Source of the DNA: Leuctra nigra
Lineage: Eukaryota > Arthropoda > Insecta > Plecoptera > Leuctridae
Length of the DNA stretch: 64,000 nucleotides
Assembly: GCA_934045905.1 (NCBI GenBank)
Contig: OW203764.1
Span: 29,490,900-29,554,899 of the forward strand
Direction of reading: 5' to 3'
Shown: one piece after another, positions 2,404 to 60,179 of the stretch
How the letters are laid out: each line of letters opens with the position of its first letter
Numbering within the stretch: position 1 is the stretch's first letter
Notes under the pieces: generated by a model
Told to the model about the DNA's origin: nothing
The model's database searches: none
What the model saw: the letters and a program-made list of their open reading frames with translations, nothing else
Made by a program: the position numbers and the translations under genes

Positions 2404-3168
2404 TGGGTTTAACCACTAGAAAGTCAAGGTCAGTGACTGAATTAACTCTTATAATCTTGCTCGACGCGTCTGATTTTCTGACCAAAATCTGACCACGTTG
2501 GACCCAGACAAATTTATAATCTAGCTCTTTAGCACGTTGTTTAGTTTGCCACAATAAATCCGCGTAGTACGGAGACAGATTTTCATTTATATAAATACGA
2601 ACAGTACCTGAGCCGTCAGTCACAATGTCTGAATTTGAGACTACCTGACGCTTTGCCGCTAGGAACTCCTCTCGTTTTTCCTGGAGCAGAACTTCACGAT
2701 GATCTTCTCAATGCGACCTTGAACTCGCCGTGGGACTCGATGGGCTGCTTCAATCTCGGACTTTTCAAGACTAACGCCGATCTTCCGAGCTATGGCCAGG
2801 ACAATTCCCTCAACGTCTTCGTCTTCTCTCACCTCGACGTTTAAGATTTCGATGTTAGACCTCCTCCCGTACTGTTCAAGGTGATTTAGCCTGGAAGACA
2901 GGTCAGCAATCTGCCGGTCCTTCACGTCCACCCTCGCCTCGAGGTCAATCACCTGCCGCTTGATGTCGTCTAGCACTTCGAGTTTAATGCTAATCCCTTT
3001 AACTTCTTCACGTAATTCGTGCACAATGTTCAATTTATTATTAATATCCTTTAACACATCCGAATTGTCAAATGTGAAGTTATCGTCGCCGTCGCCCGTT
3101 GGCGTACCCGATTTAGGTTTAAGTTTTGGTGGCATTACGTCCAACAAAACTCGTTTCCTGCACAGCAC
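2387..3168 (-). pseudogene. LINE ORF1 (coiled-coil RNA-binding protein), frameshifted
   Basis: The N-terminal part (3168 to about 2659) has a basic start (likely initiating at MPPKLKPK, 3133), then a long coiled coil with heptads, then the HLEQYGRRSNIEILNV and AAHRVPRR signatures typical of L1/CR1-type ORF1 proteins. The reading frame closes at 2659, but the expected continuation (EEFLAAKR, then a C-terminal domain with NENLSPYYADLLW) runs in another frame to the stop at 2387. The frames connect if one base is missing in the run of five T (plus strand) near 2672-2676. This is either a real inactivating deletion or a homopolymer sequencing error. The family binds element RNA and assists reverse transcription. 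Confidence 0.75.
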
Positions 3169-3244
3169 ACGAATTGACTCGGAGCTACCCTATAGCACAA
3201 CCTTCCTCGTCGAGAGTTCGCGAGCGAATGTGCGAATGTATTAG

Positions 3245-9800: not shown

Positions 9801-12800
9801 ACTTTTACCATCGACTACCAAATACTAAATACAAATGAATCAGAATCTAAGAAAATGGGCCCGTTGATGACGTAATTGAGCGAGAGAAGCGAGCGTCTCC
9901 TTTTGGCTCTTTTGGCACGGACCTCTGTTTTTTTGTTTTTTTTTTGTTTGTTTGTCTGTCGTCTGCTCGTATACAGGTCACACCGTTTATTCGATCGAGC
10001 TGAAATTTTGCACACATGTCCAGACCAAATATGAGATTTGCAGACCCTAATTTTTTTGAAATCCCCTGATTGGTTCAAATTTTAGAAAAATTATCTTTCG
10101 ATTGGTCCGTTCAATCAATTTGAAATTTAGCAAAGTCATTGCAACCAACATTTTACCCAATCATAAAAAGTTTCAGCAAAATCCTCCCATTGGTTCAAAT
10201 TTGAAACCATTTTTCCTGTGATTTTTGAAATTTAAACTAGAACCGATTGACCGACCAACTTAAAACTTCGCATGGTCATTGGTAGCAACATTTAAGGTAT
10301 TTTTGCCAATTTTCAGTCTAATTTGTAGTTATTTTCAAAAGATTTTGTAATTTTAGGGACATTTTGTGTGTTGGCTGTCAAATTCACGGCGACTTCGAAT
10401 CTTCAGTTCAAGGCAAGGTAGTTAGAGCAGAAAGTTTCAAACGAAATGAAACTAATAATGACCGTTCAACAGATTGATCTGATATTGTGTACACAGTAAT
10501 ATCATATCATATGAGTGGTCCCAGGTATATTGTTTGAAAGATATCCTGTGATTTTTGAAACTTAACAAGGAACCGTTCAATCAAAGGTTTAATCGATCAA
10601 CTTAAAACTTAGCAAGGTTATTGGGACCAATATTTTTGGAGATTTTGGAGATATTTATTTATACAAGTCTGTGACGAAATTCAAGAATTATTGGCTTTTA
10701 ATGACATTTTCGACAGACATAATTTCGGTTCGAGGTGTTGCGTGTATCCGTGCTCGCTCATCAACGCGTTACTCAGAGCGTTTTCCTAGTATAAATTTAC
10801 AACATTCAGAAATTACACGACATTTTCACTTGCTGATCAAAGTACGTAAGAATGAGTGAACGCATTTGAAATTGCGTAAGCTGACAATACGTATTGTACC
10901 TAGACACACTTTCGTTGACAAGATCGAATCATCATTTAAGAAGGTAATTTTTTAGCCATTGAGATGGTCTCAATCTGGGTCCACTGCACCGCTTTTGCAT
11001 TTTCCGTTTTTATTCTTACAGCTTATCACAAATCCACAAACCGTTCACGGTAGACTTGTGATTGGTTTATAGAAAAAAACGGAAAACGTAAAACGCAAAA
11101 AACGGTCTGTGTACCCAGCTTTATATTAAAATTCTAACAGAAAACTACTGGCACTGACATCAATCATCACGGTAACTTCCTTTATTTGATCGACCTGACT
11201 GACAGGTCGGAGATGTTTTGTTTATGTTCCACATTCGGGAATGCATTTCTCTCTGGGTGATCAAATGTAAGTTCTAGAACAACAGTCGCATGTTACATGA
11301 CCGGCCGGCTTCCTCTGGCTCCACGTGGTGTTTACTGACCTGTGAACAGGACGTCGCCTCCATCCAACTTGGCCGCCTCGTCAGCAATCTCCACGATAGG
11401 CATGTCCAACTCCTTCTTCAGCACAGCACGCACAGTCTCCACCTGCACAACACAAGGCAGCGAGTCAGCACAATGACAAGACGCATGTTCTGACGAAACA
11501 AGATCTTGGCACGATTCAGTTGCATGGCAATTAGTCAACTGCAACGCATCGATGTTCTAACTCGAAGTAAGTAGGTACCTATTTGCATTATTTGCGTCAA
11601 CCTACTCTGTAACCTCATCGCCTCCACGGGTGTTTATAGGCGAAACCTAGCTGTAGAATGAGCAAATTTTACCACTGCACAAATAAATAAGTCGAATGCG
11701 TTTGTACGACCATACGTTATTTACTTAAATAAATCAAAACCTACATAAAATGATAATTTGTATCTTTAATTCCTTTTTTAATTTGGTTTTGTACCAAAAA
11801 AGCCAACTGTTCATTTCATGTTGATCTAGTGGAACCAGCAGGTAGCAGCTGGCTGGGCAATATTTCGGGGTTCCTCGGCACAAAAGTGTTCAAGCAGAAG
11901 AAATAACCTAATGAAACGAAATTCTCAAAATAATTAATTTTTTCCTTTTACTAAATGTCTATTTTATTACGACTCTTCTATACTCATATTGCTTCAGGGA
12001 ATGACGTTAGTTATACTCTGTGAATAGTTAAATATGTAATATTTTATTGATGCTGTATAAAAAGGTGCATGGTGTGGAAAGTTGCAAGGTGGCCCACTAA
12101 GGTCCTAGTGACTTCTTTTGTTAGAAGAACCTTTGTTTGTTTTGTTATCCATTATTTGTGGGAGAAAAGACGTAATTTCTTTTCATCTTTACCATCATTT
12201 CAAACAAATTACTGAAGACTAGTTTATCATACGTACGTTCATCTTCAGACAGCATCTGGCCACTAGGAATGAAGATTATTATTTACTCAAGAAATTTCAG
12301 CGACGACCAAGACTAAAAATATGAATGAATACTGATGAGTTCCTCAAGTACTTTCATTCATGGTATTTGAATAACTAATTTACATCAAACTACAGTTCGT
12401 TACAAATGATTCAACTCTGTCGATAGATTGTTACATCAGTCACGACAATTACTTTTTTACATCTGGGTAAGTGGAAATGAAAATGAGATCATCACGTATA
12501 ATACCATTTACCTGTTTGCCGGCCGCCGCCAAAACAAGTAGGTATTACATCATTGACACTGCAGGCTTGGCATAATATGTTGGTCGGTACAGGGAGTAGC
12601 AACTACATTGTCACACGATATCTGGCCGACCTTTCCCCTCATAAACTCCCAAGTGAAGCTGATTTAGCATTCAATTCACGACCACTCAGACATAGCGTTC
12701 AATTGAGAGCCATTCAAATCTGATGTCGTTGAAAAGTGTTCGTCTGGATTGGAGTGGTGATCCCTCCAGGGCGCGAGGCAATGCAGAGATGGGAGTTTGA

Positions 12801-23600: not shown

Positions 23601-26600
23601 GTTTGACGACATAGGATATGAGAGTTTGTTCTTCTTTGAAGAATAATCTGGATTAATATGCACAGCCATCTACACTCGTCGTTCGTTCCTCCTCCTCGTG
23701 AGCTGCCTGTTAACTGAATAAAAATTGCAGTTCCTCACTTGCCGTCCCGAGAAGGGGCCGCCACCGACGCGCTTTTGAATAGCCAAGGCGGCGGTGGCAG
23801 CCCCTTCCCGGGACAGCAAGTGAGGCACTACAATTTTTATTCAGATAACAAGCAGCTCACGAGGAAAAGGAACGAACGACAAATGTAGACGGCTGTGTTG
23901 CTTATTAAGGATTTGAGGAAGACTAAAGATAGGAAGAGTCGAGGTTGAAAAGTGGAGGAATGATATAAAAACTTGGCGATTATTCCGTAATAATTGGAGG
24001 TAGCTATACAAAAGTATTTTCCTGGGACATCAGAGAAATACGCACATAACAAATAACAATAAATAATTTTTTTTGAGACCTCTTTGAAGATGAATTTAAT
24101 TTTATATTATTTATCCATTTTTAAGTTAGCTTTCTACACAATTAGACCTGCATAGATAGACTAATAAATAATTTATTGCTAGGCTAGGAAACTTATGAGT
24201 GACACTGCAATAAGCTTAATGCTGTGATCAAAACCTGAACATAGTGTGTTAGCAATTTCCTGTTTGAAATTAGTAAATGGATTGTTTCTTAGATGGTTGA
24301 TTACAAAGACAAACTGCATCTATTGGTCACAGTTCTTTCCCCATTCCGACAGACCCGACCTATGTCCTCCAAATGTCTTCCAATCCAATTGCATGGATTG
24401 GCAATTTAGAGAGTGGGGGAACTTTGAGAACTGTGATCCTATCCAACTAACACAAGACCTCACCTTGCGGCCGAATGTGAACTTAAAGATGAGGTTCAAG
24501 ATGCCGTTGGGGATTCGTGTGCCGAGAGCGTGTTGCAAGTTGACCTTGTAGCCTTTGACGACGTTTTCGGGGTACTTGGCCCTCCACCATGCCACGCACC
24601 TAAAATGAAGATAAACATAGTTAGCTCAAGCTCAAGAAACATTTGCATACATTATAGATCCTGACCTTCCTTGTACCAAGATTTGTAAGATAGCTTGGCA
24701 AATTCATTAGTAATTCACATGTTAGTAATTTCATTTAAGTGTTCATTAAGAATACATTTTTATTATGTGAGATATGACATGGAAATTTAGACATAAGGTC
24801 CTGGCAGAAGTTAAAAACTACTAGGAGTCAAGTGGCCAAAATAACATAAAGAAGTCATAATTTCGAACATTTGAACATATTCAAATTCCAGTTACCTGAG
24901 TACAAAATTAATATTTTGAATTTTTTCCCTTCAAAAACAAAATTCACTGAAAAACCTCCGAACAAAATCCTATATCGATAATTTTTTTTCATTATAACCT
25001 AGGTTGTTGCCAAAAACCGAACATGGAACACCTAACACATATTTCATGAGGTTTCAACAAGTTTTTAAAAAACAGCGTGGAATACGATTACGGCACTAAA
25101 TCTGGCGTTGTGTGAACACTCACCAGATGAGGTGGTTCTCAATCATGGAGATCATCGCATGCGACACATTCTTCTGGTCGTTGGTGAGGCCCGCGTCCAG
25201 GTTCTTCTCGTAGCGCTGGGATAGTTCCTTGAGGATGATGGCGCTGTCGGGGATCTCCTCACCATTGAGCTCGATGAACGGCAGCTGTCCCTTTTTAGAG
25301 CGGAACTTTGTCTTGTGGTCCACATTCTGAAACACAAACCACCGAGTTAGAAAATAGAACATCTTTGAGACAGGAGTTGCTTCTCATCTTGATATTTTAC
25401 ATGGTAGGTAGTTGACAAAATTTACAGAGAACAGCAATTGATCTTGATTTTGGGCTTATATCAATTAAATTTAACTCTAAGAATAGTTCAGTTTAGTTTC
25501 AGTTTATTAGTAAAACAATAGGTCCGTGAAGTTAGCACCGCCCATTAACGCACTAATTATCTCATGTGTGGGATGAATTAGTGCACAATTAGTGCGTTCG
25601 ATCGGCACTAATTTTATAATTAGTGCGTCATCCGTTTCCGAGAAAAACGCACTTTACTATGGGCGGTGCCAACTTCACGCAGCACCGCCCATTGACGCAC
25701 TAATTTTCAAACCCACACAGGCAATTAGTGCACAATTAGTGCGTTCGATCCCCCCCATTCCCTAAATTAGTGCGCACTTACTTTTCGAGTTATTCGTGAA
25801 TAACCGTGGGCGGTGCAGCACCGCCCATTGAAAATTTCAAGGTTTTCAGCACGCCATGTTTTAGTGCACAATTAGTGCGTTCGATTCCCCCCATTCCCAT
25901 AATTAGTGCGCACTTACTTTTCGAGTTATTCGTGAATAACCGTGGGCGGTGCAGCACCGCCCATTGAAAATTTAAGATTTTCAGCACGCCATGTTTTAGT
26001 GCACAATTAGTGCGTTCGATTCCCCCCATTCCCATAATTAGTGCGCACTTACTTTTCGAGTTATTCGTGAAAAACCGTGGGCGGTGCAGCACCGCCCATT
26101 GAAAATTTCAATGTTTTCAGTACGCCATGTTTTAGTGCACAATTAGTGCGTTCGATCCCCCCCATTCCCATAATTAGTGCGCACTTACTTTTCGAGTAAT
26201 TCGGGAATAACCGTGGGCGGTGCAGCACCGCCCATTGCAAATTTCATGGTTTTCAGCATGCCATGTTTTAGTGCACAATTAGTGCGTTCGATCCCCCCCA
26301 TTCCCATAATTAGTGCGCACTTACTTTTCGAGTTCGAGTGCTTACTTTTCGAGTGCTGCACCGCTCACGGTTTTTCACGAATAACTCGAAAAGTAGGTGC
26401 GCACTAATTATGGCAATGGGGGGGATCGAACGCACTAATTGTGCACTAAAACATGGCATGCTGAAAACCTTGAAATTTTCAATGGGCGGTGCTGCACCGC
26501 CCACGGTTATTCACGAATAACTCGAAAAGTAAGTGCGCACTAATTATGGGAATGGGGGGGATCGAACGCACTAATTGTGCACTAAAACATGGCATGCTGA

Positions 26601-29600
26601 AAACCTTAAAATTTTCAATGGGCGGTGCTGCACCGCCCACGGTTTTTTACGTTTACTCGAAAAGTAAGTGCGCACTAATTATGGGAATGGGGGGGATCGA
26701 ACGCACTAATTGTGCACTAAAACATGGCGTACTGAAAACATTGAAATTTTCAATGGGCGGTGCTGCACCGCCCACGGTTTTTCACGAATAACTCGAAAAG
26801 TAAGTGCGCACTAATTATGGGAATGGGGGGAATCGAACGCACTAATTGTGCACTAAAACATGGCGTGCTGAAAATCTTAAATTTTCAATGGGCGGTGCTG
26901 CACCGCCCACGGTTATTCACGAATAACTCGAAAAGTAAGTGCGCACTAATTATGGGAATGGGGGGGAATCGAACGCACTAATTGTGCACTAAAACATGGC
27001 GTGCTGAAAACCTTGAAATTTTCAATGGGCGGTGCTGCACCGCCCACGGTTATTCACGAATAACTCGAAAAGTAAGTGCGCACTAATTTAGGGAATGGGG
27101 GGGATCGAACGCACTAATTGTGCACTAATTGCCTGTGTGGGTTTGAAAATTAGTGCGTCAATGGGCGGTGCTGCGTGAAGTTGGCACCGCCCATAGTAAA
27201 GTGCGTTTTTCTCGGAAACGGATGACGCACTAATTATAAAATTAGTGCCGATCGAACGCACTAATTGTGCACTAATTCATCCCATACATGAGATAATTAG
27301 TGCGTTAATGGGCGGTGCTAACTTCACGGACCTTAAAACAATTTGTTGCAATCATTGGGTGAACATGTTTATTTGCAACATAGCCTTGATAAAAAATTAA
27401 AAATGCTTGAATGAAAAGGTTGTAGGGGCAAGGAGATACCAAAACCAAATGAGATCCAAAATATTTTCCACACACTTTATTGAATACCTGCACATTACAG
27501 CTACCAATAGCCTGTCATTCATCGTGCTGTGTGTTATATTGTGCCAATTTAGGTACTACCGAATTTAAGGGAAAATATAAATCATGCTGGGAAATTAAGA
27601 AATAATTTATAAGAGGTGGTGTGTTGTTTCTTTTACTAGTGGCAAAACTCGCTACAAAATTATACATTTAAATCACCAAAATCGCAATATTTTTCACATT
27701 TTCACAAAACTATAGAAAACATTTTTGAACACAGTTTTCAAACAAGTTTCAAAGTGATGTTTTTGAAATCAGGTCTACCAACTGCACGGTTCACTGGCGA
27801 TCTCGGCGTGAAATCTTTACCCTCAATCAACACGTGCCGGGGCTGGCAGGAAAGAAATTGCATTAGCATCCGCGTGGGTGGGGGCAGAATACATTGAACC
27901 TGGAGGGTGGGGGGGTACATGACAAACACTCTGGCCCTATTGACTTAGGTAGGTAGGGGTGATGACAGCAGGGGCGGCACAAGGCGGGATGCGAACACGA
28001 GAACAGCGGGAAACACAAATATGCATTCGAAAATAGGAGATATATAGTCTATCGCCCCCCTACCCCCAACCTCGATGGGAAATTAAGGTTAGTTATTCTG
28101 CAATTTATAAAGCTTCAGCATACAAGAACTGTTACGTCTTCAATAGTATTACGTATTTAGATAATCTAAATGTCAAATTTTAGGAGCATGAAATTGATAA
28201 GCATCTAAAGGTTTTCTTCAAAATTCGCGAGAAAGAAATGGAGACATTTAATTAAGATAAAGGTTCAAATTACAAGAAAGAAACAACTTTCAGATCTCGT
28301 ACTGTCGGTGGCCTTTGTTGCGTAATTCAAGCAATTAGTCTAAATTCTCAGAAGAATTTTTATTGGATACTCGACTCCAAAACGTTCTAAAAAAACTCTA
28401 ATTTAATCCGACTCTTCTCTAAAGATTCAATCAGGGCTGTCAAGTACATCGTTAAGATTCTCGAACAATGTCAATGAATGTTGAATGACTTGGAGGGTGG
28501 GATGGGGTGGTCTAGCCTGGAGGAGGGGGGACAGAGAGGGGGGGGGGGAGGACGTACACCACCCCCAGTATTGATCTCTCGCAAGCCAGACGCGCTCCAC
28601 GGACAAGGGGGGAGAGGGAGGCACGCACCCTACCCTGCCTGCACACCCTATATACCCCCAGCTGTCTACAATCCAGATCTACCCTCCGAGTCTGCTAAAA
28701 CCAGCAGCTAGACGCACCCTTCCACGGCGACGGCGTGTATAACGTCGCCGATACCATATTAGGAGTTGCCACTGTTGTGTTCTCGCAAGTTCCACCAACC
28801 GCCCCGGGAAATATGATATACGACCCTTGGGCAATTACCTCTATGCCGAAGAAGTGGGGCATTGTTGCAGATTGATTGGAGCTTAATCTACGATTCGGGT
28901 GATAATATTAAGTCGTAAACCCGAGGATCAAGTCGGTCGCAAACGCTTAGAGGAAATGCACGATAACTCGTAAGATTGGTAGTAAAAACGACACAAATTG
29001 GCCGCCTTTGTGCGAGCAAACAAGGTAATAACTTACGTGATTCGATTCCCTTCCCACTCGAGTCACGCAACGAGTATTTGTGATTTACTACATTATTTTG
29101 TCATATAAAAATCCCATGGATCGCAATAAATTGTAGATAAATCCGGAGTAGCTCAAACTTGTCCCAAAACAAAACGTAAAAATATGTTACTAAATAATAT
29201 ACGCGAACTCTTGTCACCTAGAAGTGATTTTAGGCAGTAAGGTACTGAATAATTATTATACTTTACAAATTATATAGGTATTAATATTTAGCAACTTCAT
29301 TAAAAACTTTTACTAAAAAAACATACTAGGCAACCATGTACTAAAACTAACTTTTTTAGTCAATAATTTCATTACTTCTAATTTATTATCCGCATTCCAA
29401 CATTTTGGTGAATAATTCGAATTAATACTACAAACTATCCTGCGTGTATATTTCGTTCCAGTTACATACAATGTCGCTGTCCGCAAGCAACGCATTGCGT
29501 GTCCTACTAGTGGCCAGCTGTGCGTTGCTGTTAGCCGTGTCGCGTGACATGGGGTGGACAGCTGCATAATCGCGACGACACGTCTGGGCACAGTTGCAAC

Positions 29601-32600: not shown

Positions 32601-35600
32601 GAAACCAGTAATAAGTCAACTGCGCTCATATACTGGATGAAAATGCACCGTCTTCAAAATTTCATTTGTCAAAAAGAAAACGACGAGATTTTCTTGAGAG
32701 AAATGTGAATCCATTATATTTTATCCTTCAACGAAATGGGGCAGTTTCGACTCAAGGCATGAAAAATTATTCACGATGTTATTCTCGGAGTTTTGTCAAT
32801 GCAACTAATATTTGCGCCTAGACGAAGATAATAGATAATAACTCCTCCAAATCAATGCTACAACGAGTTGAACTATTCACCACATTGAAAAGATTCACAT
32901 GCTAAACACATGGACCATTGCATAGAAAGAGATTTATTTTCGAATGCTTGACACATTTCTTGTTAATTTGAAAAGTACAATAAGTTGACCGTGGAAGCCT
33001 GGAGGCTGCGTACTGACTACTGTCCAGGATACAAATTATTGAAATTATTGTCCCTTATTGCGATTCCCTATAAGATTGAAATGATGACACTTATAGTAGT
33101 AATTCAAACTTAGTACCTACGTAACCCCAAGGGTCAAGTAACAAAAGAACATATTTTAGCGCCTGTTTTCGTGTAAAAGTTGTCGGACTGCGAGAGAACA
33201 CCCCACGCTCGAGAACACCCCACGCTCGAGAACACCCCACGCTCGAGAACACCCCACGCTCGAGAACACCCCACGCTCGAGAACACCCCACGCTCGAGAA
33301 CACCCCATGCTCGAGAACACCCCACGCTCGAGAACACCCCACGCTCGAGAACACCCCACGCTCGAGAACACCCCACGCTCGAGAACACCCCACGCTCGAG
33401 AACACCCCACGCTCGAGAACACCCCACGCTCGAGAACACCCCACGCTCGAGAACACCCCACGCTCGCGAACACCCCACGCTCGAGAACACCCCACGCTCG
33501 AGAACACCCCACGCTCGAGAACACCCCACGCTCGAGAACACCCCACGCTCGAGAACACCCCACGCTCGAGAACACCCCACGCTCGAGAACACCCCACGCT
33601 CGAGAACACCCCACGCTCGAGAACACCCCACGCTCGAGAACACCCCACGCTCGAGAACACCCCACGCTCGAGAACACCCCACGCTCGAGAACACCCCACG
33701 CTCGCGAACACCGCCAAAAAGGAAGTCGTCAGCGTAAAACATTCTGCCAGACAACAGCATCTGCACGTCGTTATGCACAAAACAGAAGAAACCAACAGAT
33801 TTTTTTACTCGTCCGCAAAATCTTCTCCAGAGATATTTTTATGCACTCTCTACGAGCCACATGTTCGGTGCTTAGATTCAGATGTAGAGAGCAAATAGAT
33901 CCAAGAGAGAGATAGAAGTCATAGTAAAATAGCAAACCTATGTGTCAGTTGTTTGTTTCTTTGATAGTAACTTCGAAGTACGTTGTTCCCGCAAATGTAG
34001 TAATAAGAGATATGCATTGTTTAATACAATTCTGACGTTAATTGCTTTGCAACTTCATACAAAATCTCTTTGAAACCTGATAGACAAAAGAGTTTTAGCT
34101 TGTAATTACGGCGCAGTCTTGCTAAAGCGGCGGCTAACGTCCCGCGGAATTGTCGCCCATGTGCTGTTGCCAGGCCGCACGGGGCCCCGCCGCCCCCGCC
34201 AGGGGGTGTGTGTGTGTGTGTGCGGGGGGTGGCGTTGCCATGGTTATCGGCCAATGAACCCGGGACCTTGGCGGCCGGCGTCTTTGCGAGGACAGCGCGA
34301 AACAAAACGCGACCATTTGGTGACCGGCCCCTCGGGGTTCCAGGGAGACAAAGGACGAAGAAAATACCGAGACGGAAAAAACAATGTTTCTGGAGGAAAT
34401 GTGATGGTGTTAGAGAGAAAAGTCTTTATATGATGATGCTAACGACTTGCCCACGAAATTAATCAAAACTATTGCAGTATCACTACAAAAATAGAGATTT
34501 CGGAGATGACACACAATAATCTTCCCAATACAAAGAAGAATGTGTAATTTGCTCAGTTAACAATAAGATTGAAAGGGGTTAGTTAATTGGGACAGAACAG
34601 GTCCCAATAGACCTTTCCGACGAAAGATAACAAATGTGTACCGACTGAGCTTTGTAAGTTTGTATACATGGAAAAATCAAAGGCACGTATTGAATTTGTA
34701 AACCTTATCAACTGAAAGACGAAGATCCAATTAAGGTTAGTGAGCAATCAAAGGCCGAAGTCAAAAGGCCATCGCGAAATGTAAAGATTTCTCGAACCTC
34801 TCACAACAATTTTCCTCCTGAAAGAAAACTCCCGAAACACGTTCCTTTGAGACGGAAAAGAAAAACACTCTGCCTATACGCCTCTAAACAGCAAATAAGA
34901 CGTCACCCAAAGAATCGAATGTTTCCGCTCAAATTAGTTCTTCATTGGAACAATATTATCGTCTCGCACGACAATCCCACCCCTTGGAGGCGAAGCAATT
35001 TGGCTCCTCTTCAAAGTCAATGCGCTGGGCTCTTCGAAATGACACCCCCCCACCCCGGCGCCATTAGACGTTCGCACCCTTTAAACACGCGGCGATTGTT
35101 TGCAGATGTAAATCAGAATCCTTTCGACTAGATGACTGACTGGTAAACTGGAGATAACTGTTGAATCTATGCTCGTCAGCTCCACCAGAATTTTACATGC
35201 AACCTCCATAATGTAGCTTGCATATAAAGTGAATACGTGAGTGTGCAATAATTTTCACGAGGAATACAATATCAGTTGTCGCCTCCGTTAATTACGTTCT
35301 CGGTACCTACATTTTATTAGAGCAAAGAAATTATTTTCTACAGCTACTTCACTGCCATTAATAAAGATAATTGCCACCTTTACTAGGTTTTCTCCTGGTA
35401 ATTTTATAAATGCCGAAGCACAGTCGACGATAATGTTTCTTGGTCAGATCATACAAAGACCATTCTCAACTGTGACCACTTTTACAGGTTGCCTTCGGTT
35501 AGAATACAGTAAGTGAAAACGAGATTGGTCTAGACTTCTGGGACTAATCTGGCTTGGAATCGTATTTGATTCTCGCAAATCATCCGTGCATATGAACAAG

Positions 35601-38600
35601 TAGGTTCAATCGCCGACCACAATAATAAAACTCAACTCAGTTCAGCAGACTATACACTCCAAAGACGTACCTGACCTCCACTGGACTCGAACCAGGATAT
35701 TCAAACAAACTGTCCGCTATTCGAACCAATCAATTGGCTGGCACATCACACATCCCGGAAGCGTCTTTGTTACGCAGCCGCACAGAAAAGGCTGTGGATG
35801 TGAAATCTGCATATACCAGCCCATCGCAAGGTGTCGCGCTATCTACGCACTTGGGGAGGCGCGAAGTGCGTGCAGGCACGAGCAAGGTCGTGAGAGAACG
35901 GGTGGTGACGAAGTAACAAGGTGCTGTGATTGCAATGACAGGTGCCACGAGCAAAGCCGGCTTCACATAAAGCGACCAATCACAAGTCCAGAAGCCGCTC
36001 AAGGGAGACTTGTGATTGTTCAATAAAAAAAGACGCGAAACGCAAAACGCGCTTTATGTGAAACCGGCTTTACACCGCCATTACCGCGGCGTTTGTTTTC
36101 ATGAATTTCGAGAGCTTTAAAACGTAACACGAGACGATTGAATCAATGACATTTAAAAACGATGGAGTAATATTACGATGTTTTAAAGGGAATGATAGAT
36201 ATTCCTACACAAATATTGATATTTTATAATTGAGATTATGATGACAGAGATATTACACCATATATGAATGATGATGATGATGATGAAAGTGTAGAAGGAA
36301 AGGTGAGAAGGAGGTGGTTACAGTCTATTTGAAGGAAATCTTTCCAGCATTTGCCTCTCGGCCGAGGAATATCATGAAAGAACTTCGGTGGATACGCGGG
36401 ATTCTAACCCGATACCTCCGGGGTGCAAATCTAGAACTACCTCAGACAACGTGCTCCGTTCCTAATTTTTCTGCGTAGTGTAGTTTTCATAGAAATAAAA
36501 GGCGTGCAATTCTGAGAATCAAAATCGACATTCTTTTTGCAATTCAGTGAAGTAACCTTCAAAAATAGAAACCGTAGCAAGTGCAGAAAGTTCTCGAGCA
36601 CGTGCTACAAATCCGCTGACTGCATGCGTTCACGTCTGCTGCCAAAGTGCCTGGTGACATCGTGACGGCAAGATGGAGGGCGACGTGACACGTGACGAAC
36701 ACGTGACAACACGTCGCAGGAAGGCAAGATGGCGAACCAACAGGAATAGGCAAGTGATTCAGACAATTAGCATCGAGTCACGGAAGGCAAGAGTTACTAC
36801 GCTACGCTAATGCAACAGGAGTTTCTATAAGCGAGTGATAGAACACTCGAAAAGAGTCCATGTGGGCTCTTTCGTTCTCCTATATTACACTAACTGAACA
36901 AATAAAAACACACAACTTACCAGAACAATGACGTGAAATCAAAGTATGTCTTACAGAAGAATGTTAAAACAAGGGTATTGGTTCAAAAAATTGAAGGTCA
37001 GTCAGCATGTGTGATTACAAATTCACAAAAAATTGCATCGCAATTCCCCAGTGCGTGCGAAGTTTACCATGTGAATTCATATTAATTCAAGAAGCAGATG
37101 GAATGGCAAATATTTGATTATTCACAACAGGAATTCGAACCCGCCCATCCACTGCGATATCTATCTCGCCTCACGCATATCGATCGAGATGGAACATTCC
37201 ATTCTCGATTCAAACGAACACGTGTTTCCCGCGCCGCGCGGCACGCGTCGCAGAACGAATAACTCGCATCGAGAGTGACAGGCGACTTGCTGTTAATTAA
37301 GCGAACATCCCACATTGTTGCCTACTTGAGACATTCGTCGCGGCGGCGGAGAGAACATGTCGGGAGATAATGGAACTGTCTGGGATGGATGCGTTTCTTG
37401 GAGGACTTCATTGTATTAGTTCCTTGAGGTGAATTTATGCAGACAGGAATTGCCAGGATAATGTACAGGCGGCGAAATGAACTCGGCAGTGACTAACGAA
37501 TAAGGAGGCCCGGTCCATAATGGAAATTGGAGTGATCTTGTCCCCCCAATACACATTTGGTGCCTATAAACTACACGACAAAATTACAAACGCTGCATCA
37601 GCCACAAAACTTTATATCATACAGAGAAATGTACACATTCTATACGGTTATTTTGTCGAAATCCTAGTCTAATTTTACAAAAAAACTAACTTCTAGACGA
37701 CCTATCAAAAGAAACACAATAAAACAGCTATATCGATGGGGACCTTACTTCCGATTCTGAGAAGAAATCAGTTGAAAGACCGTATACAACATTGGAGTTC
37801 CTTTCATCTGATATCAAATTTAGCATCGTTTTATCTTTTCAATCATATTACAAATTTCAATTTTCAGTTACCGCAAACACGTAAACCGAATTGTTTCATG
37901 ACCTGAGCCATTCCACCTCCATTATCTCGCACCACTGCAATGGTCCTCGTCTACGCCCTGCAATCTCTGCGGTTTAGTGCGATATAATCGACTCTTCGAC
38001 ATCGGCGTCGCCCAGATGGTGATCGTAAATGTTCGCCTCTCAACGGAGATCGCCTTTATCGCCGACAGAGGGTGGAGGATGGGGGCGCGAGCCCTCGACA
38101 GCCCTGTAGAACAATTCATTAGCAGCAGAACGGGGATCATCGCGGCCGATAACGTGGCTAGCCGCCTGGGAAAGGGATTCAGATGACAAAGCAAACACGG
38201 GAGAGTAAAACTTACAGAAATACATCAAGAAACTCTTTAGGAATAACTTTACGACATCAAACAGAATTGTGGATCTAGCGCATTAGGAACATAAGCTAAC
38301 ATCACAGAAGAATTACCGTGACACCTCGGCAAATATTCAACAGATAAAGCGGGATCAATTCCTCAAACAAGATGAGAGTATTCAAATATTATTGTTATAA
38401 ATGTAATTTTGATGTTTTACTGTCTACTCCCTACATTTAACAATGTTTATCAATCGGCATGGAAATAATTGTCATAAACTTCACAATAAACTCTACAGAG
38501 ACACTGTGGAGAAATAGTGGAAGCCAGCGAAGCGAGGATGTCTGTCACCTTTATGTGCAGCACACAGTCCGTTACCCCCACGTTACGTACTGTTTACCAG

Positions 38601-44600: not shown

Positions 44601-47600
44601 GGAGTGCACGAATTCGCGACTGAATTAGCATACTCGGATGGCCACCCCTGCGTAAGGGTAAGTGAACATGACTGCCCAGTGTGTCGGGTGACCTTGATCG
44701 CACTCGCAACACCCGATCGGCGATCACATAACCTTCGGATTCCAGTCCCGCCGCGCGACCGAGCGCAGTTGGCACCTGGCTAATCGCATAGACACACTGG
44801 GTCAAACGATTACACGGCGACCCGATGGGACTGAAACGCCCATCACTAATCGACAGTTGGCGACGTCACATTGATTTCTTCATTTCCTGAGTCAAAATAC
44901 ATGCCGGCTACCTTTTCACTGATGAAGTGATTGCTGAAATATTACAATAAAAGTCAAGATCAGGATACATAAATTACTTCTCATGAGGACACAAGAAAAG
45001 ACGATATGAAACCATCAAACTAATAATGTATTATTCATTGATATCATTATGATCTTATTGCGCACTGACATTCTAAAATTATCAGATGGTATTAATTTAC
45101 GAAATTAATGCGGAGGTAATGAACATAACCTTATATCACGGAATTTCTAATAGTTTCCATATTAGAAACAATCGTAGACAAAATAACATGTTAGTACAGA
45201 AACACTAGAATACGTACTGTACCTACTAGTAGTACGTGTACTAGGTAAAATAGAATTTCTAATATTTTTCATGTATCCAGCGACAGCCAGATTTTTGTTG
45301 AGACATTGAAATTTCAACAGCAAAACATCAACAGGCGAGCAGTATCTGAATTGTCGAACGAATTGCTACCTGGCGTTGAAGGATTTCTGTTTAAAAAAAG
45401 CACGAGAATTCCGCACACAAAGAAGACAGCACCTGCATTATGCACTTTTAGAGGTCACTCTCCATGCACCATGTGATAACGATACTTAATTTAACTGATT
45501 AGTGTGAACATGTCGAGCGAGATTTCTCCAAGAAACAGGACGCTGTTTACGAGCAATTGTGTTTGATGAACGACAGAACAATGCGTGGTTTTCCTCCCGA
45601 CTAATAACCGACGACCTGGCTTGAATAGGTGTTGAGTGAATCATAATTTACCTCGCCCCGCCTGTCTACATGACACACTGACATCTTTGCCAGCAGAGAA
45701 ATTAAGAAAAATAATGTATCCCTAGGGTAAACATTTAGGTATTTGTTTTGAAAACGGCTGACCTCCACGCATCCTGTCCCGAATGCTTTTCATGCCTAAT
45801 AGCATTGGTATTTTTACAGATTCTGTGAATTCATTGTGACTGGTCATTAGGAGCTAATTATGTTGACCAAAACAAATTCCAACTACGTGTGAGCATAAAA
45901 TTAAAATATGCAAGATAAACGTATGTAAAACTGACTCATTCGTCATTTATGTCCAGAACCTGCAAGCTCACAGGGAACTTAATATTTCATCTGGAATGTG
46001 TGTTCTGGCTTTCTCGTAGTCTGTCACGTAAAGGTCACGGGGGAGGGGGCCGTGATATCACAACCTCAACAAGTGAGTCATCCCATGAGTCACCGGCGTC
46101 GCGACGCCGACGAGCTCGAGGCACGGGCGTCGTGCGTGCACGCAACCGGCTAGACGCACGAATGGTCAACGATTACTGTAATTAGGCGGGCATACACAAC
46201 ACAGGCCACGAGACTGCACAGGAAACGCGAGATTATAATGTCGGTGGTTGTTGAATGAGGATCATAGGTGAAACAAACAGGGCGACATTAGTAATTCCGT
46301 GTAGGATGACCTCTTCTGCTATTCCAATCGAAATCGGTTTTAGGTATATTTCAACAGAAATGGAACAAAACCTAAATAAAAAAGTGGAGTAGTATATATA
46401 TCCTTCAGCAGTTGCATCCTTTATATTTTCAGATTTCAAAATACAAGATTAGAAAGGAGATCGCTATACATGATAAAATGTATTTGTGTGATTATTTTTG
46501 TTTTAAATGATATTACAAAATCTTATTAGGTAATTTCGCAAATCTATTTAGAAATATGACGAAATACATAAAATGCGAGGGGTTAACAACTCCGGAAATC
46601 TGGTGTACAACTAGCCAGGAAATCTTTGGAAATCTTGAAAATCTTCGGTAATCTTTGAAATCTTAGATAATCTTAGGAAATCATTGAAATCTTTGAGATC
46701 TGGGAAATCTGAGAAATCTTCAAAAATCTTTGGAAACCTTCGAAAATCTTTGGTATTCTTTGAAAATCTTTGGAATCTTATGAAATCTTCTAAATCTCGG
46801 AAATCTTTGAAATCTTATGAAATCTTCGAAATCTCGGAAAACTTAAGAAATCTTGGAAATCTTTGAAAATCTTGGAAATCTTCGGAAATCTTGTAAATCC
46901 GAAATCAGGTGTACACCAAAACTAGTAGTTTTAACCCCCTCGATAAAATGCAGGTCGAATTAAAAATAAAACAAAACAAAAAAAGCGCTAACAATATAAT
47001 GCGGGCCAAAGACAGAGACTCAAAGTAATCTAATTTTTACTGTCTTCGGAAGTCGCAAGGTGGACCGGACCACCCAACCAGAACATAAGATTCAAATTAC
47101 ATTCAATATAGTTACGAACCTGCATCGTAAAATAACAGTTATTCCACACAAAGAGGAACTGAAGGGTTGAACGCGTCTATTATTCATCAGTTTACCTTTA
47201 GACCTAATTCGAAATCGGGTCATTGAAGTGGGTCTCTGATAACACGGGCATTGACGTGACATCACGGGCATTGACGTGACATCACGCGAGTGACAGGGAC
47301 ACGGTATGGAGTGCGAACACAATCAATACACGCCGACAAGGAAGACACGAGAGCAAGCAACACACTCGAGATCACTGATTCACGCTTTACAACAGTCGTC
47401 AGTATGAATTATAAAGAGAACGCGATTTAGCAAACATGCGGTGGGGGATGTAAAACAAGCGAAATAAAAACAACATGAGATTACGATAAAATTCCACAGG
47501 TAGTGAAATGTTGATTTGTAAAAAAAATGCTTTACATTGGTAATGTATCGAAATTACACCAAACGCTTAAATTTTTATCCAGCGATTTGGTCCCGAAATT

Positions 47601-51500: not shown

Positions 51501-53387
51501 GTAGGCGCCCGAACTGTGGGGAATATACGACCTATGTGGGTGGCAGAGTTTCAAGGGGAGAGGAGATTAAAAAGTAGAATGCAAACGTTCGTTTCAAATG
51601 ACAGATTTTAAATGGAAAATATTAAAACTTGCTGGAGGTCGGAGCTTCAGACATAAAAATGGGTTTAGCGCCCTGAATTATTTTGAGTCTATGAATAATG
51701 ACAAATGAGTGACTGACTAACCACAGCCAGACCAATGAATCAGAAGATGTGAAGTGATTGACTCATCTAAGCAGCCAGACTGATTTATCACTCCGACAAT
51801 TGACTGGATTGTAAAATTACTTTAATGAGGGACACACGGACACACGTTACAGCTATTATTAATCACTTGGTCGGTTTGTGGTTTATCATTTATCAAAATG
51901 TCAATGTCTTTCCTAGTGACTATGCTGATACATCCGCCCATTGATAACATGCACTGCACATCCCCCCACAGCCTTATCGGCCAAGACAAACTGATGACGC
52001 TTATCATCGCTGTTCGATAGCATTCCATATCCGTCACAATACACTACAATCCGGAAGAGAAGAATACGATAAGATCAAAATAGTAACCCACATTCCCACA
52101 CATCCGAGAAATTAACTTTAAATATGTACAAACAATTATTTATATCACTAACACATTGAGTTAAATAAAAAAATATCACCCTCTCTCAAAGTTAAGTACC
52201 AGCCTACTTCAAAAATTAAGTACACGAACAAAAACTCCTCAGCAATGACATGCGTTTAGATCGTGGTTGATACCACACCGCTTTCATCACCAACATAAAT
52301 GAAGCCCGCATTCCGAAGTTATTAGTTAGGCAATACTTTTCTTACACTCACTCATACATGGATTCTAAGAAATGGTGGAACACGCAAAATAAATTATTGG
52401 ACTAGTTCTACGAGTAAACCGAGTTTTAACTCGCATAAAGGCAGAGCCAGCGTTCGTCGGTAGGTATTCAGTATTTGAAGGTCGTATTTGTAAATGTGAT
52501 GCGATTCGCTACTAGCGACAGGTTGGACCATTGTTGGAACTCGTAACATGTTATTATTGCAATATATTATTGGCTGTTCCATTGTTGAATTTACATTATT
52601 GGCGAAGTCTGGAGTAAAATTGTCAGTTTGGAAAGTTCAATGCTAGAGTAAGCAACTTTGTCAAGTACTAAAAGCATAATAAATACTTCCTAAACTGTGT
52701 CCTCCCTCACGGCAAACATCAGAATTATATGTAAACTTGGCCTTTATCATCAGCAAACAGCAGCCTAATCAAACATTGATCTTTGTACTTAACAATATTT
52801 TCCCAAGAGATGCTTCTACAAACATAGCCCAAATAATACTGTCGATAACATAAAGTAACTATTTGTGCATCACAAATCAACAATACATAGGTCAGTTATC
52901 GCAGAAGAGAATGGAGCTGAAGACGATCATGGAAATAGATCGCACAATCTAGATTCAATGCCGATACTCTGCGAGAGTTCAGTGGCATTGGCTTGGCGCA
53001 TTCCTGCCTGTCGCCGGGTAGTACAACATGGTTACACCCCAGGGAAATTCTACTGTGCATAAAGCCAACGGGTTTTCTCGCCAGAAATAACGCGAAGAGT
53101 TTTGTAAAACTTACCTCGTATTTAAGTCCAGCAAGTCTGAGCCATGTTTCCACCTTCAAGCAGTACGGCGAAATCGACGGCAAAAGCGGCGTACGCGAAA
53201 ACTGGTACAAATAGATAATGTCCTGCTCGAAATTGATCTTGTGCACCACTGGTTTCGGAGGCTGCGTTGCCTGAACGACCGGCTCGGCTACCTTTTCCTC
53301 TTCTTTAGTCGGCGTTTTGTTGGTATCGTTTTGTAAAGCTTCGACTTCCTTATTTTCCACCGGCACGTTATTTTCCTCACTCGCCAT
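20545..53387 (-). CDS. fax: Failed axon connections (Fax), seven coding exons
   Basis: Joining 53387-53115, 25326-25124, 24599-24464, 23513-23376, 22186-22056, 21424-21253 and 20619-20545 gives 375 residues with all GT-AG introns and consistent phases. Fax was found in Drosophila as a dosage-sensitive modifier of Abl kinase mutants affecting axon growth; it is a GST-fold protein of the metaxin/GST_C_6 type with no proven enzyme activity. Layout: low-complexity acidic/Pro N-terminus (1-48); thioredoxin-like domain from about 56 (YLYQFSRTPLLPSISPYCLK, KKGQLPFIELNGEEIPDS); all-helical GST_C-like domain from about 140 (NVSHAMISMIENHL, WWRAKYPENVVKGYK, FTFGRK, MLADKPFFFGDEPSTLD, NLVGHTNRMKERCFPDWEDM); and a Lys/Glu-rich tail (318-375). 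The first intron is 27,788 bp, long for this compact protein, and holds most of the repeats in the window. Identification is very secure. Confidence 0.96.
21253..21424 (-). CDS. fax: fax coding exon 6
   Basis: Completes Arg294 and runs to Lys351: CFPDWEDMCKTLDLNSHLPK, then a Lys/Glu/Asp repeat tail. Acceptor CAG 21425-21427, donor GTAAGT 21252-21247. Confidence 0.94.
21488..22055. other. fax: fax intron 5 remainder
   Basis: Non-coding AT-rich DNA with a C-run near 21,951-21,961. Nothing else recognised. Confidence 0.5.
22056..22186 (-). CDS. fax: fax coding exon 5
   Basis: Residues 251-293 plus two bases of Arg294: LDVVAFAVLAQ, then NLVGHTNRMKER. Acceptor CAG 22187-22189; the donor is a weaker GTGCGC. 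Confidence 0.92.
23376..23513 (-). CDS. fax: fax coding exon 4
   Basis: Residues 205-250, GVKKVKAQGMGVHKPEEI to FFFGDEPST; phase 0 at both ends. Acceptor CAG 23514-23516, donor GTGAG 23375-23371. Confidence 0.95.
23661..23897. repeat. 237-bp foldback element in fax intron 3
   Basis: Two arms of about 105 bp are inverted copies (CACAGCCATCTACACTCGTC... against ...GACAAATGTAGACGGCTGTG) separated by about 20 bp around 23,775. They share AATAAAAATTG, CTCACTTG and GGGGC cores. Similarity fades gradually past the ends, so the boundary and any target duplication are unclear. Confidence 0.8.
24464..24599 (-). CDS. fax: fax coding exon 3
   Basis: Completes Trp159 and runs to Lys204: VAWWRAKYPENVVKGYK and NLQHALGTRIPN. 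Acceptor TAG at 24602-24600, donor GTGAG 24463-24459. Confidence 0.95.
25124..25326 (-). CDS. fax: fax coding exon 2
   Basis: Residues 92-158 plus two bases of Trp159; NVDHKTKFRSKKGQLPF at its start. Acceptor CAG 25327-25329, donor GTGAG 25123-25119. The 1.8-kb foldback element ends only about 190 nt upstream of this acceptor. Confidence 0.96.
25520..27333. mobile_element. 1.8-kb foldback (FB/MULE-like) palindromic transposon
   Basis: The ends are perfect inverted repeats, AGGTCCGTGAAGTTAGCACC on the left mirrored on the right, flanked by a perfect 9-bp duplication TAAAACAAT (25511-25519 and 27334-27342). The arms run about 25,520-26,335 and 26,348-27,333 and are nearly identical in inversion. 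Each arm is built of direct units of about 135-136 bp: core GTGGGCGGTGCAGCACCGCCCAT at 25806, 25942, 26077 and 26213, and its inverse at 26482, 26618, 26753, 26888 and 27024. The core is itself a palindrome. Long inverted arms made of tandem units plus 9-bp duplications match Drosophila FB elements, which are grouped with Mutator-like transposons. There is no transposase. All open frames inside are repeat artefacts. Confidence 0.9.
27343..29700. other. fax: fax intron 1, segment without a gene
   Basis: No coding or RNA signal. Contains G-rich tracts near 27,900 and 28,520-28,550 and an inverted GGCGACGG...CGTCGCC pair near 28,726-28,750. Confidence 0.5.
29701..30286 (+). mobile_element. 5'-truncated LINE, 3' end with A-rich tail
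   Basis: The open frame 29701-29922 ends with NNKYGKRALRYVVPAIFNKIP and KNWLL, the usual C-terminus of CR1/Jockey-type ORF2 proteins. A 3' UTR of about 330 bp follows, then a (TAAAA..)-type tail at 30,248-30,286. CACTAGACCAC/GTGGTCTAGTG (30192-30215) forms a perfect inverted repeat near the 3' end, as expected for an RNA structure read by the reverse transcriptase. The 5' end and target duplication were not found. It cannot be compared with the left-edge LINE, whose 3' end is missing. Confidence 0.72.
30287..33193. other. fax: fax intron 1, segment with two inverted repeats
   Basis: 32,094-32,217 is an imperfect hairpin (GTGGTGTGAAAAACG mirrored by CGTTTTTCACACCAC, plus TTCGACCTC/GAGGTCGAA outside). 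32,528-32,572 is a short hairpin around CCATGGAG/CTCCATGG. Otherwise nothing recognised. Confidence 0.5.
33194..33703. repeat. 17-bp minisatellite, 30 copies
   Basis: The unit GAGAACACCCCACGCTC is repeated exactly 30 times (510 bp), plus a 9-nt partial unit. Within the 30 units only two substitutions were seen, at 33308 and 33467. Each junction makes CTCGAG. Because 17 is not a multiple of three, 51 bp cycles all frames and long open frames appear on both strands; these are not genes. Confidence 0.95.
34203..34228. repeat. (GT)n microsatellite and G-rich patch
   Basis: A short GT run followed by a G-rich stretch inside a locally GC-rich patch (34,115-34,290) of fax intron 1. Confidence 0.7.
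34290..35619. other. fax: fax intron 1, segment without a gene
   Basis: AT-rich to mixed composition; no repeat, RNA gene or coding signal recognised. Confidence 0.45.
35620..35760 (-). mobile_element. tRNA-derived SINE candidate
   Basis: On the minus strand, CTGGTTCGAGTCCAG (box B GGTTCGAGTCC, 35683-35693) forms a T-arm-like stem-loop. It is preceded by GCCAATTGATTGGTTCGAATAGCGG, which resembles a decayed box A region. It is followed by unrelated sequence with a TTTTATTATT end. No complete cloverleaf. Confidence 0.45.
35953..36070. mobile_element. 118-bp MITE-like inverted repeat
   Basis: Terminal inverted repeats of about 22 bp (AAAGCCGG(C/T)TTCACATAAAGCG). Internal ACTTGTGATTG pairs with CAATCACAAGT. 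It shares the GCGTTTTGCGTTT and ACTTGTGATTG motifs with the element at 10,975-11,118, suggesting one superfamily. No clear target duplication. Confidence 0.65.
36265..36462 (-). mobile_element. tRNA-derived SINE with (TCA)n tail
   Basis: On the minus strand, a tRNA-like head includes GGAGCACGTTGTCTGAGGTAG and CGGGTTAGAATCCCG (box B-like, in a 4-bp stem). A roughly 100-bp body follows, then a (CAT)n tail at 36,265-36,286. Head-body-simple-repeat tail is the standard SINE plan. No flanking duplication could be confirmed. Confidence 0.6.
37095..37205 (-). mobile_element. tRNA-like SINE remnant
   Basis: GGTTCGAATTCC (37130-37141, minus) is a consensus box B. The upstream GCGTGAGGCGAGATAG is only a weak box A. 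No tail or duplication seen. Confidence 0.35.
39800..39900 (-). mobile_element. tRNA-like SINE remnant
   Basis: On the minus strand GACGCGCAGTCTTTCTCCCCG, then CCCGGGTTCAATTTGC, resembles the anticodon-to-T-arm half of a tRNA-derived SINE with a decayed box B. Confidence 0.35.
39901..46575. other. fax: fax intron 1, long stretch without a gene
   Basis: Patches of higher GC (41,580-41,830; 43,000-43,200) alternate with AT-rich DNA. Contains a CGACGTC-rich stretch at 41,585-41,660, a C-run near 41,843 and a (CG)n tract near 43,860. No coding exon, tRNA or clear element recognised. Confidence 0.45.
46576..46942. mobile_element. hAT-like element filled with GAAATCTT tandem repeats
   Basis: Terminal inverted repeats CGAGGGGTTAA / TTAACCCCCTCG, with TGGTGTACA/TGTACACC pairing further in. 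Flanked by ATAAAATG on both sides (46568-46575, 46943-46950); a ninth shared C makes 8 or 9 bp possible, but symmetric ends favour 8 (hAT type). The interior (about 46,618-46,905) is a degenerate tandem array of 9-14-bp units such as GAAATCTTTG and GGAAATCTTC. Confidence 0.75.
47243..47285. repeat. Tandem duplication of about 20 bp
   Basis: CACGGGCATTGACGTGACAT occurs twice in succession; no further copies. Confidence 0.8.
47286..52890. other. fax: fax intron 1, right part without a gene
   Basis: Homopolymer and dinucleotide tracts: 17 C then (CA)n at 48,565-48,598, a G-run near 49,945-49,956. A CRE octamer TGACGTCA at 51,233-51,240. No exon or RNA gene recognised; open frames here have no family resemblance. 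Confidence 0.45.
53115..53387 (-). CDS. fax: fax coding exon 1
   Basis: Residues 1-91, from ATG 53385-53387 (context ACCAACATGGCG, a strong insect start) to the GTAAG donor at 53114-53110. Ends ...LRLAGLKYE, phase 0. Confidence 0.95.
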
Positions 53388-53570
53388 GTTGGTTAGCAAT
53401 TAAAACTGGATTGTTTTGTTGAGAACGGTGCACGACGAAACGAACGAACCGATCTCGTCTTCACAATGCAACAAACTGGGGTAGTTTTCTAGCGAGCGTA
53501 GCGCGCGGTCGCTTCTAGAACTGCGAATGAGAAGCTACCCAAGCCATGACGTCACGGCTACGGCTGGAGT
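53388..53570 (-). promoter_or_regulatory. fax: Likely fax promoter and 5' UTR
   Basis: A GC-rich block just upstream of the fax start. It holds a perfect CRE palindrome TGACGTCA (53547-53554) and TTCTAGAA (53513-53520), which looks like a heat-shock-factor half-site pair. A more distant 5' UTR exon cannot be excluded. Confidence 0.4.
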
Positions 53571-58657: not shown

Positions 58658-58781
58658 AAAGTGCAGGCAAAATTTAGTCCCGATCGGAACTAAAAGGGTG
58701 AAAAAGTATCGAAAATGTACTCGCCTTTTTATATCTTTTAAGTTATCAATAAACACTTTAAAGTCAGTTAAGAGTTAAGAG

Positions 58782-59170
58782 GCAAACGGAAGCGAACGGG
58801 AATCGCACGGTTCGTCAGAGCGTTTTTTTGAAATTTTGTCATCCCGCTAAATAATTTTAAAAAATCAGATAGTAACGACCCATTACAGCCTAAAATACTA
58901 AATATTGCCGCACACTGGAGTACTTTATGACCTCTGGTGCGACCTCAAAGTGTTAAATACGATTATTTTACTTATAATATCTAAAAATATCGTATTTAAC
59001 ACTTTGTGGTCGCACCAGAGGTCATAAAGAACTCCAGTTTGCGGCATTATTTAGTCTATTAGGCTGTAATGGGTCGTTACTACCTAATTTTTTTAAATTA
59101 TTTAGTGGGAAGACAAAATTTCAAAAAAATGCTCTGACGAACCGTGCGATTCCCGTTCGCTTTCGTTTGC
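58782..59170. repeat. 389-bp near-perfect palindrome
   Basis: Arms of about 185 bp (from GCAAACGGAAGCGAACGGGA; mirrored end TCCCGTTCGCTTTCGTTTGC) meet near 58,976 with a spacer of about 20 bp. Only scattered mismatches separate the arms. No flanking duplication found. Confidence 0.88.
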
Positions 59171-60050: not shown

Positions 60051-60053
60051 TTA

Positions 60054-60176: not shown

Positions 60177-60179
60177 TTA

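What the first reader, a model, noticed from the sequence alone, without database searches (positions are those of the whole stretch)
25520..27333. FB-like foldback transposon with tandem-unit arms and 9-bp duplications
Seen directly: perfect mirrored ends, a perfect TAAAACAAT duplication, and arms built of ~135-bp direct units whose core is itself palindromic (palindromes within repeats within a palindrome). Arm identity is very high, so it is recent or kept similar by gene conversion. The right arm has about one unit more than the left, pointing to unequal exchange. The plan matches Drosophila Foldback elements, but the unit sequence (TTAGTGCAC and GGGCGGTGC motifs) is not one I recognise; it may be an undescribed family.
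Basis: partly seen in the sequence, partly recalled or inferred. Interest (0 to 1): 0.75.

Follow-up and report, generated by a model that had tools for sequence, protein, structure and literature searches.

The report
Foldback transposon with tandem hairpin arms
This is a transposase-less jumping gene in an intron of an insect gene, built almost wholly of two mirror-image arms of repeated hairpin units; the type is known and the unit sequence was not found in what could be searched.

Summary
25520-27333 (1,814 bp) is an inverted repeat flanked by the perfect 9-bp duplication TAAAACAAT. The mirror symmetry starts exactly at those duplications. The left arm has six ~136-bp units (the last truncated) and the right has seven. 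Units match by position between arms: the outer 680 bp differ by one substitution and one indel. The surplus unit is the innermost one, beside a 23-bp centre that carries a 14-bp copy of arm sequence. That points to internal deletion of a longer parent more than to the unequal exchange proposed. All 13 units carry an identical TTAGTGCACAATTAGTGCGTTCGA block. The terminal units fold into branched hairpins (z about -9.8). No open frame exceeds 105 codons. The element lies about 190 bp from an acceptor in a fax intron of an insect, probably polyneopteran.

Best reading: a non-autonomous Foldback-type DNA transposon, mobilised in trans by a MULE or Rehavkus-type transposase that binds the repeated blocks. 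Architecture and duplication length match published elements (Rehavkus-1_TC, Tm1, Tetris). The transposase and further copies could not be sought, because the whole-genome search did not complete (12 attempts). So superfamily membership stays inferred. New member of a known kind.

The parts
25511..25519 (+). left target-site duplication TAAAACAAT
   Evidence: only perfect 9-bp pair at this spacing among 62,091 positions
25520..27333 (.). whole foldback element, 1,814 bp, longest stop-to-stop frame 105 codons
25520..25681 (+). left terminal unit L0: outer end AGGTCCGTGAAGTTAGCACCGCCC, inverted inner copy of CGTGAAGTT.GCACCGCCC at 25661-25679; folds as branched hairpin
   Evidence: (z -9.84)
25682..25817 (+). 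left unit L1 (0 differences from R1 over 108 columns)
25818..25953 (+). left unit L2
25954..26088 (+). left unit L3 (0 differences from R3 over 108 columns)
26089..26224 (+). left unit L4; arm identity breaks near its inner end (about 26199)
26225..26334 (+). left unit L5, truncated at its inner end
26335..26357 (.). asymmetric centre; contains CTTACTTTTCGAGT (from 26341), a 14-bp copy of arm sequence
26358..26492 (-). right unit R6, innermost, no counterpart in the left arm; its inner edge is a variant (GCACCGCTC)
26493..26628 (-). right unit R5
26629..26763 (-). right unit R4
26764..26898 (-). right unit R3
26899..27035 (-). right unit R2
27036..27171 (-). right unit R1
27172..27333 (-). right terminal unit R0, branched hairpin
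   Evidence: z -9.78
27334..27342 (+). right target-site duplication TAAAACAAT
25120..25326 (-). host context: coding part of a fax exon (stop-to-stop frame 25120-25383; acceptor read by eye at 25327-25329; inner limit not determined), about 190 bp from the element

Best explanation
A non-autonomous Foldback-type DNA transposon that inserted in the long intron of the fax gene of an insect, probably a polyneopteran. Shown: exact 9-bp duplication at the ends of the mirror symmetry, position-matched tandem-unit arms, an identical 24-bp block in all 13 units, a hairpin-forming terminal unit, no transposase gene, an asymmetric centre with a copy of arm sequence. Inferred: a transposase of the MULE or Rehavkus group, encoded elsewhere in the genome, binds the end motif (CGTGAAGTTRGCACCGCCC) and the repeated TTAGTGC blocks, pairs the two arms, cuts the element out and inserts it with a 9-bp stagger. 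The arms were made or kept alike by one inverted-copy event or by arm-to-arm conversion after the units had diverged. The centre was left by interrupted repair of a longer parent, whose middle, perhaps with its transposase gene, was lost.
For: Boundary and duplication. Flanks not mirrored. Units match by position: for L2-L5 the in-order pairing with R2-R5 has the fewest differences of 120 pairings, 5 against a mean of 14.4. The outer 680 columns of the arms carry 2 differences. The block TTAGTGCACAATTAGTGCGTTCGA is identical in 13 of 13 units, while unit types L0, L1 and R5 share only 48/91 (L0-L1), 45/91 (L0-R5) and 66/91 (L1-R5) of the columns compared outside it. This fits a binding site under constraint. 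Terminal units fold far better than shuffles. The 14-mer copied at the centre fits repair by template switching. Published parallels, all seen as passages: Rehavkus-1_TC, 164-bp units in inverted termini; Rehavkus, 9-bp duplications; Tm1, foldback ends with 9-bp duplications and a Phantom-type MULE transposase; Muta1, palindromic end motif plus tandem subterminal repeats; most foldback elements assigned to Mutator; secondary transposase-binding sites in Galileo tandem repeats.
Against: Only one copy was seen, so mobility rests on one duplication. No transposase and no second copy: the own-genome search did not complete (12 attempts). Duplication length alone does not identify a superfamily. 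The element's first base is A, whereas PMC13359780 reports conserved G/C in the first three bases of most arthropod MULE ends; the next two bases here are GG. Binding of the repeats is inferred, not tested. The 24-bp block was picked because it is invariant, so the Fisher p values (2.6e-6, 7.7e-7, 0.0017) are post hoc; the block could also reflect a recent shared origin or conversion. In the unit alignment L2 is no closer to R2 than to L3 (2 differences each); the arm alignment shows a single indel between L2 and R2.
Confidence: 0.75

Rival explanations
1. Same kind of element, but mobilised by a transposase outside MULE/Rehavkus (for instance P/Galileo-like or hAT, with an unusual 9-bp stagger). 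The foldback form would then be convergent.
For: Foldback form has arisen in more than one superfamily: Galileo belongs to the P superfamily (start of the abstract of PMC3573991 in the listing), and PMC4079207 speaks of exceptions to Mutator (passage).
Against: A perfect 9-bp duplication fits MULE and Rehavkus (the table rows of PMC6446971 seen; 8-10 bp, most commonly 9, for Tm1). Shorter duplications for P and hAT are recalled, not looked up.
Confidence: 0.15
2. A satellite-like tandem array that became inverted by a local break and fold-back repair, not a transposon; the 9-bp repeat is coincidence.
For: Tandem ~136-bp units resemble short satellite arrays; repeats of such arms are also found as satellite arrays (Tetris; TCsat23).
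Against: The only perfect 9-bp pair at this spacing among 62,091 positions sits exactly at both edges of the symmetry. The outermost units are special terminal units with an end motif. The symmetry stops sharply at both sides.
Confidence: 0.04
3. An assembly or library artefact (chimeric inverted read).
For: Long palindromes are a known product of chimeric reads (general knowledge).
Against: A fold-back read would mirror the flanks too; they are unrelated (28.5% identity over 200 bp). The two arms differ in unit number and in inner sequence, and a perfect 9-bp duplication sits at the edges.
Confidence: 0.03
4. A remnant of a hairpin-ended replicating element (parvovirus-like terminal repeats) rather than of a cut-and-paste transposon, because the terminal unit is a branched, T-like hairpin.
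For: Branched hairpin in both terminal units, z -9.84 and -9.78. The likeness to parvovirus ends is recalled, not compared.
Against: Perfect 9-bp duplication; tandem units behind the terminal one; no frame above 105 codons; no exact match to four end or unit patterns in the viral-contig collection, a test that would miss diverged relatives.
Confidence: 0.03

Closest known systems
Rehavkus elements (Rehavkus-1_TC of Tribolium castaneum)
   Same: Inverted termini holding tandem units of similar size (164 bp, mostly five and eight monomers; PMC10218199, passages); 9-bp duplications and long inverted ends (26-400 bp; PMC6446971, passages); arthropod and annelid hosts.
   Different: Rehavkus-1_TC is 9.5 kb; Rehavkus elements carry a transposase with a PHD finger and, by PMC6446971, a minisatellite before the 3' end only. 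This element is 1.8 kb, has no transposase and has arrays in both arms. No sequence comparison was possible (Repbase not held).
Drosophila Foldback (FB) elements
   Same: Long inverted arms of tandem units around a middle (recalled).
   Different: FB's unit lengths and end sequence were not looked up; from recall its repeats are shorter (about 10-31 bp) and its ends differ.
Tetris of Drosophila virilis
   Same: Non-autonomous, foldback form, ~220-bp tandem units in the arms, 8-10 bp duplications (PMC4079207, passages).
   Different: Tetris has an outer flanking domain (up to 866 bp) before the array and a middle domain; here the array starts with a 162-bp hairpin unit and the middle is about 23 bp.
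Tm1 (Meloidogyne, Phantom-type MULE) and Muta1 (Aedes, MULE)
   Same: 9-bp (Tm1, most commonly) or 8-9-bp (Muta1) duplications and composite tandem-repeat ends; Muta1 has an imperfect palindromic end motif (passages).
   Different: Their repeats are 12-15 bp; here units are ~136 bp, each with three TTAGTGC blocks in one orientation. Their transposases are known.
Galileo (P superfamily)
   Same: Foldback-like form, ~210-bp tandem repeats in the arms of one subfamily, secondary transposase-binding sites (PMC3573991, passages).
   Different: P-type transposase; duplication length 7 bp is recalled.

Membership tests
Foldback-type (structural class) | Long inverted arms making up nearly the whole element | tested here: met
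Foldback-type (structural class) | Arms composed of tandem direct repeats | tested here: met
Foldback-type (structural class) | Target-site duplication at both ends | tested here: met
   (this one copy)
MULE / Rehavkus superfamily | Duplication of about 8-11 bp, usually 9 | tested here: met
   published range from passages
MULE / Rehavkus superfamily | DDE transposase of this group, in this element or an autonomous partner with the same ends | not testable with these tools
MULE / Rehavkus superfamily | G/C in the first three bases of the end (reported for most arthropod MULEs) | tested here: inconclusive
   end is AGG; report
Drosophila FB family | FB end and repeat sequences | not tested
   no FB sequence was held
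Rehavkus | PHD-finger transposase | not testable with these tools
   no coding region; feature
Rehavkus | Minisatellite before the 3' end | tested here: inconclusive
   tandem units in both arms, not one; PMC6446971 describes one side, PMC10218199 the inverted termini of Rehavkus-1_TC

The most novel reading that the evidence does not exclude
An unnamed polyneopteran transposon family whose ends are not linear binding sites but iterated cruciforms. Each arm is a series of hairpin-capable units, capped by a branched hairpin unit carrying the end motif in both orientations. The transposase, or a repair enzyme, would recognise the folded form, and the inner copies of the end motif could serve as alternative ends.
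Probability: 0.1. Interest if true: 0.55.

Novelty: new member of a known kind. Interest (0 to 1): 0.3.

Why it matters
Foldback elements have been implicated in inversions and in seeding satellite DNA (passages and abstract starts), yet how their arms grow and stay alike is not settled. This copy shows units that match by position between arms, a break in identity towards the centre and a junction with copied arm sequence. Those features make models of arm homogenisation and internal deletion testable once further copies are compared. Otherwise it is an ordinary intronic insertion.

Tried and rejected
Unequal exchange as the cause of the surplus unit: less likely, because units correspond in order and the surplus unit is innermost, but not excluded. 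Satellite inversion, assembly artefact and virus-like ends: see rivals. Relatives elsewhere: exact patterns in viral contigs gave 0 matches in 4 scans. An 18-mer in genome contigs gave 2 single matches in unrelated bacterial MAGs, neither holding a 19-base pattern of the block, so I take them as chance; about 7 are expected for an 18-mer in 257 Gb on both strands by my own arithmetic. Literature: eight text searches. The motif search found 200 papers with at least one of four strings; the 20 listed showed no transposon title and no occurrence of the two longer strings. The other 180 were not seen, and Repbase/Dfam were not available, so no claim that the family is undescribed can be made. Rfam (gathering thresholds) and tRNA scans of the window: nothing. 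The element has no BLASTN match (E up to 1) elsewhere in the window. Five other hairpins show no direct repeat longer than 5 bp at their edges, within the 10-18 bp searched on each side. The Fisher p of 1.7e-5 for more differences in the inner 136 columns used a break chosen after looking and treats clustered differences as independent, so it overstates the case.
Full report
What is there. The stretch 25520-27333 is a 1,814-bp inverted repeat. The outer 373 bp of the arms match with one mismatch. The perfect 9-bp pair TAAAACAAT abuts both ends; it is the only such pair at this spacing among 62,091 positions. Outside it the flanks show no mirror symmetry, 28.5% identity over 200 bp. The longest other exact inverted repeat in the window with starts up to 2.5 kb apart is 32 bp; the largest imperfect one has 204-nt arms at 90%.

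Anatomy of the arms. Cut at GCACCGC(C/T)C, the left arm has six units (L0-L5) and the right arm seven (R0-R6). Successive marks lie 135-137 bp apart for internal units and 147 bp for the terminal unit; the innermost units L5 and R6 run into the centre. Neighbouring units meet in the palindrome GGGCGGTGC(A/T)GCACCGCCC, 9 times intact; the exceptions are the inner edges of L0 and R0, which carry the end motif, the truncated L5 and the variant inner edge of R6. Every unit carries three TTAGTGC in one orientation; L1 and R1 have one more in the other orientation, and L0 and R0 two more. The motif ATTAGTGC occurs 36 times on both strands of the element and GGGCGGTGC 24 times; neither occurs elsewhere in the window. 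Three runs of five or more columns are invariant in all 13 units: GCACCGCCCATT, TTAGTGCACAATTAGTGCGTTCGA and AATTAGTGCG. In 91 columns outside the 24-bp block (first 12 and last 24 alignment columns left out) L0-L1, L0-R5 and L1-R5 share 48, 45 and 66, inside it 24 of 24 each. The block was chosen because it is invariant, so the p values are post hoc. That pattern is what a repeated protein-binding site would show, but a shared recent origin of the block is possible too.

Terminal unit. The end motif CGTGAAGTTRGCACCGCCC occurs at both ends of each terminal unit, in inverted orientation. As single-stranded DNA both terminal units fold into a branched hairpin, z -9.84 and -9.78, with 0 of 200 shuffles folding as well. 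Five of the eleven other units were folded: L1, L2, L3, L4 and R6, with z -5.62, -4.63, -4.46, -3.23 and -2.83; 0, 0, 0, 1 and 4 of 200 shuffles folded as well.

How the arms relate. Aligned from the outside in, the arms differ by one substitution and one indel in 680 columns, then by 8 of the next 136. Over 108 columns L1 and R1 are identical, as are L3 and R3, and L4 and R4; L0 and R0 differ by 1, L5 and R5 by 3. L2 and R2 count 2 differences in that unit alignment, the same as L2 and L3; the arm alignment shows one indel. The in-order pairing of L2-L5 with R2-R5 has the fewest differences of 120 pairings. So the arms became copies of one another, or were converted, after the units had diverged. 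L5 is nearly as close to R6 as to R5 (4 against 3 differences), so an exchange at the inner end cannot be ruled out.

Centre. The left arm stops inside unit L5 at 26334 and the right arm starts with R6 at 26358. The 23 bp between hold a 14-bp copy of arm sequence (CTTACTTTTCGAGT, found 10 times in the arms). Filler of this sort is typical of repair with template switching (general knowledge). I infer that a longer parent lost its middle by interrupted repair.

Host and site. Exons read by eye from the translations and joined match Failed axon connections proteins: 748 proteins passed, 120 were listed. All six named proteins among the first eight hits are polyneopteran insects (Timema twice, Bacillus rossius, two Schistocerca, Zootermopsis), at 72-85% identity; hemipterans and other insects follow. 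The element lies about 190 bp upstream of the exon that starts near 25326 on the minus strand (read by eye), in an intron of roughly 27 kb if the frame at 52896-53399 holds the preceding exon. That frame matches Pfam GST_N_4 below its curated cut-off, and the frame at 13392-13949 matches a DDAH family just above its cut-off. The species itself is not established.

What it works like, and what it is. The plan is that of Foldback-type DNA transposons. Passages seen in published work give close parallels: Rehavkus-1_TC with 164-bp units in its inverted ends (PMC10218199), Rehavkus with 9-bp duplications (PMC6446971), Tetris with ~220-bp units (PMC4079207), Tm1 and Muta1 with 8-10 bp duplications and MULE transposases (PMC3169594; PMC5225508), Galileo with secondary transposase-binding repeats (PMC3573991), arthropod MULEs with inverted ends up to 1,193 bp (PMC13359780). 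Structural class membership is met.

Verdict. A real, well-preserved, non-autonomous foldback transposon copy; a new member of a known kind, with an elaborate hairpin-in-hairpin design that may deserve a closer look when more copies are available.

Noticed in passing
58772-59180: Second hairpin, 204-nt arms about 90% complementary with 1 nt between; no shared sequence with the foldback element; no edge duplication above 5 bp found. Possibly another foldback-type repeat.
   Followed up: partly
60050-60180: Short hairpin with TAAACC/GGTTTA motifs, CTTAG at both edges; looks like a small MITE.
   Followed up: partly
23661-23897: Hairpin of 110-nt arms (88%) with a 17-nt loop, lying between fax exons read by eye; no clear duplication.
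   Followed up: partly
33194-33712: Minisatellite, 30.5 copies of a 17-bp unit (GAGAACACCCCACGCTC), 99% matches, open in several frames on both strands.
   Followed up: no
46618-46899: Degenerate tandem array of a 9-10 bp unit (GGAAATCTT).
   Followed up: no
2659-3189 (-): 176-codon open frame that reads like the first ORF of a non-LTR retrotransposon (by eye); no Pfam match.
   Followed up: partly
11025-11096 and 35979-36050: A 72-bp dispersed repeat pair, 81% identical.
   Followed up: no
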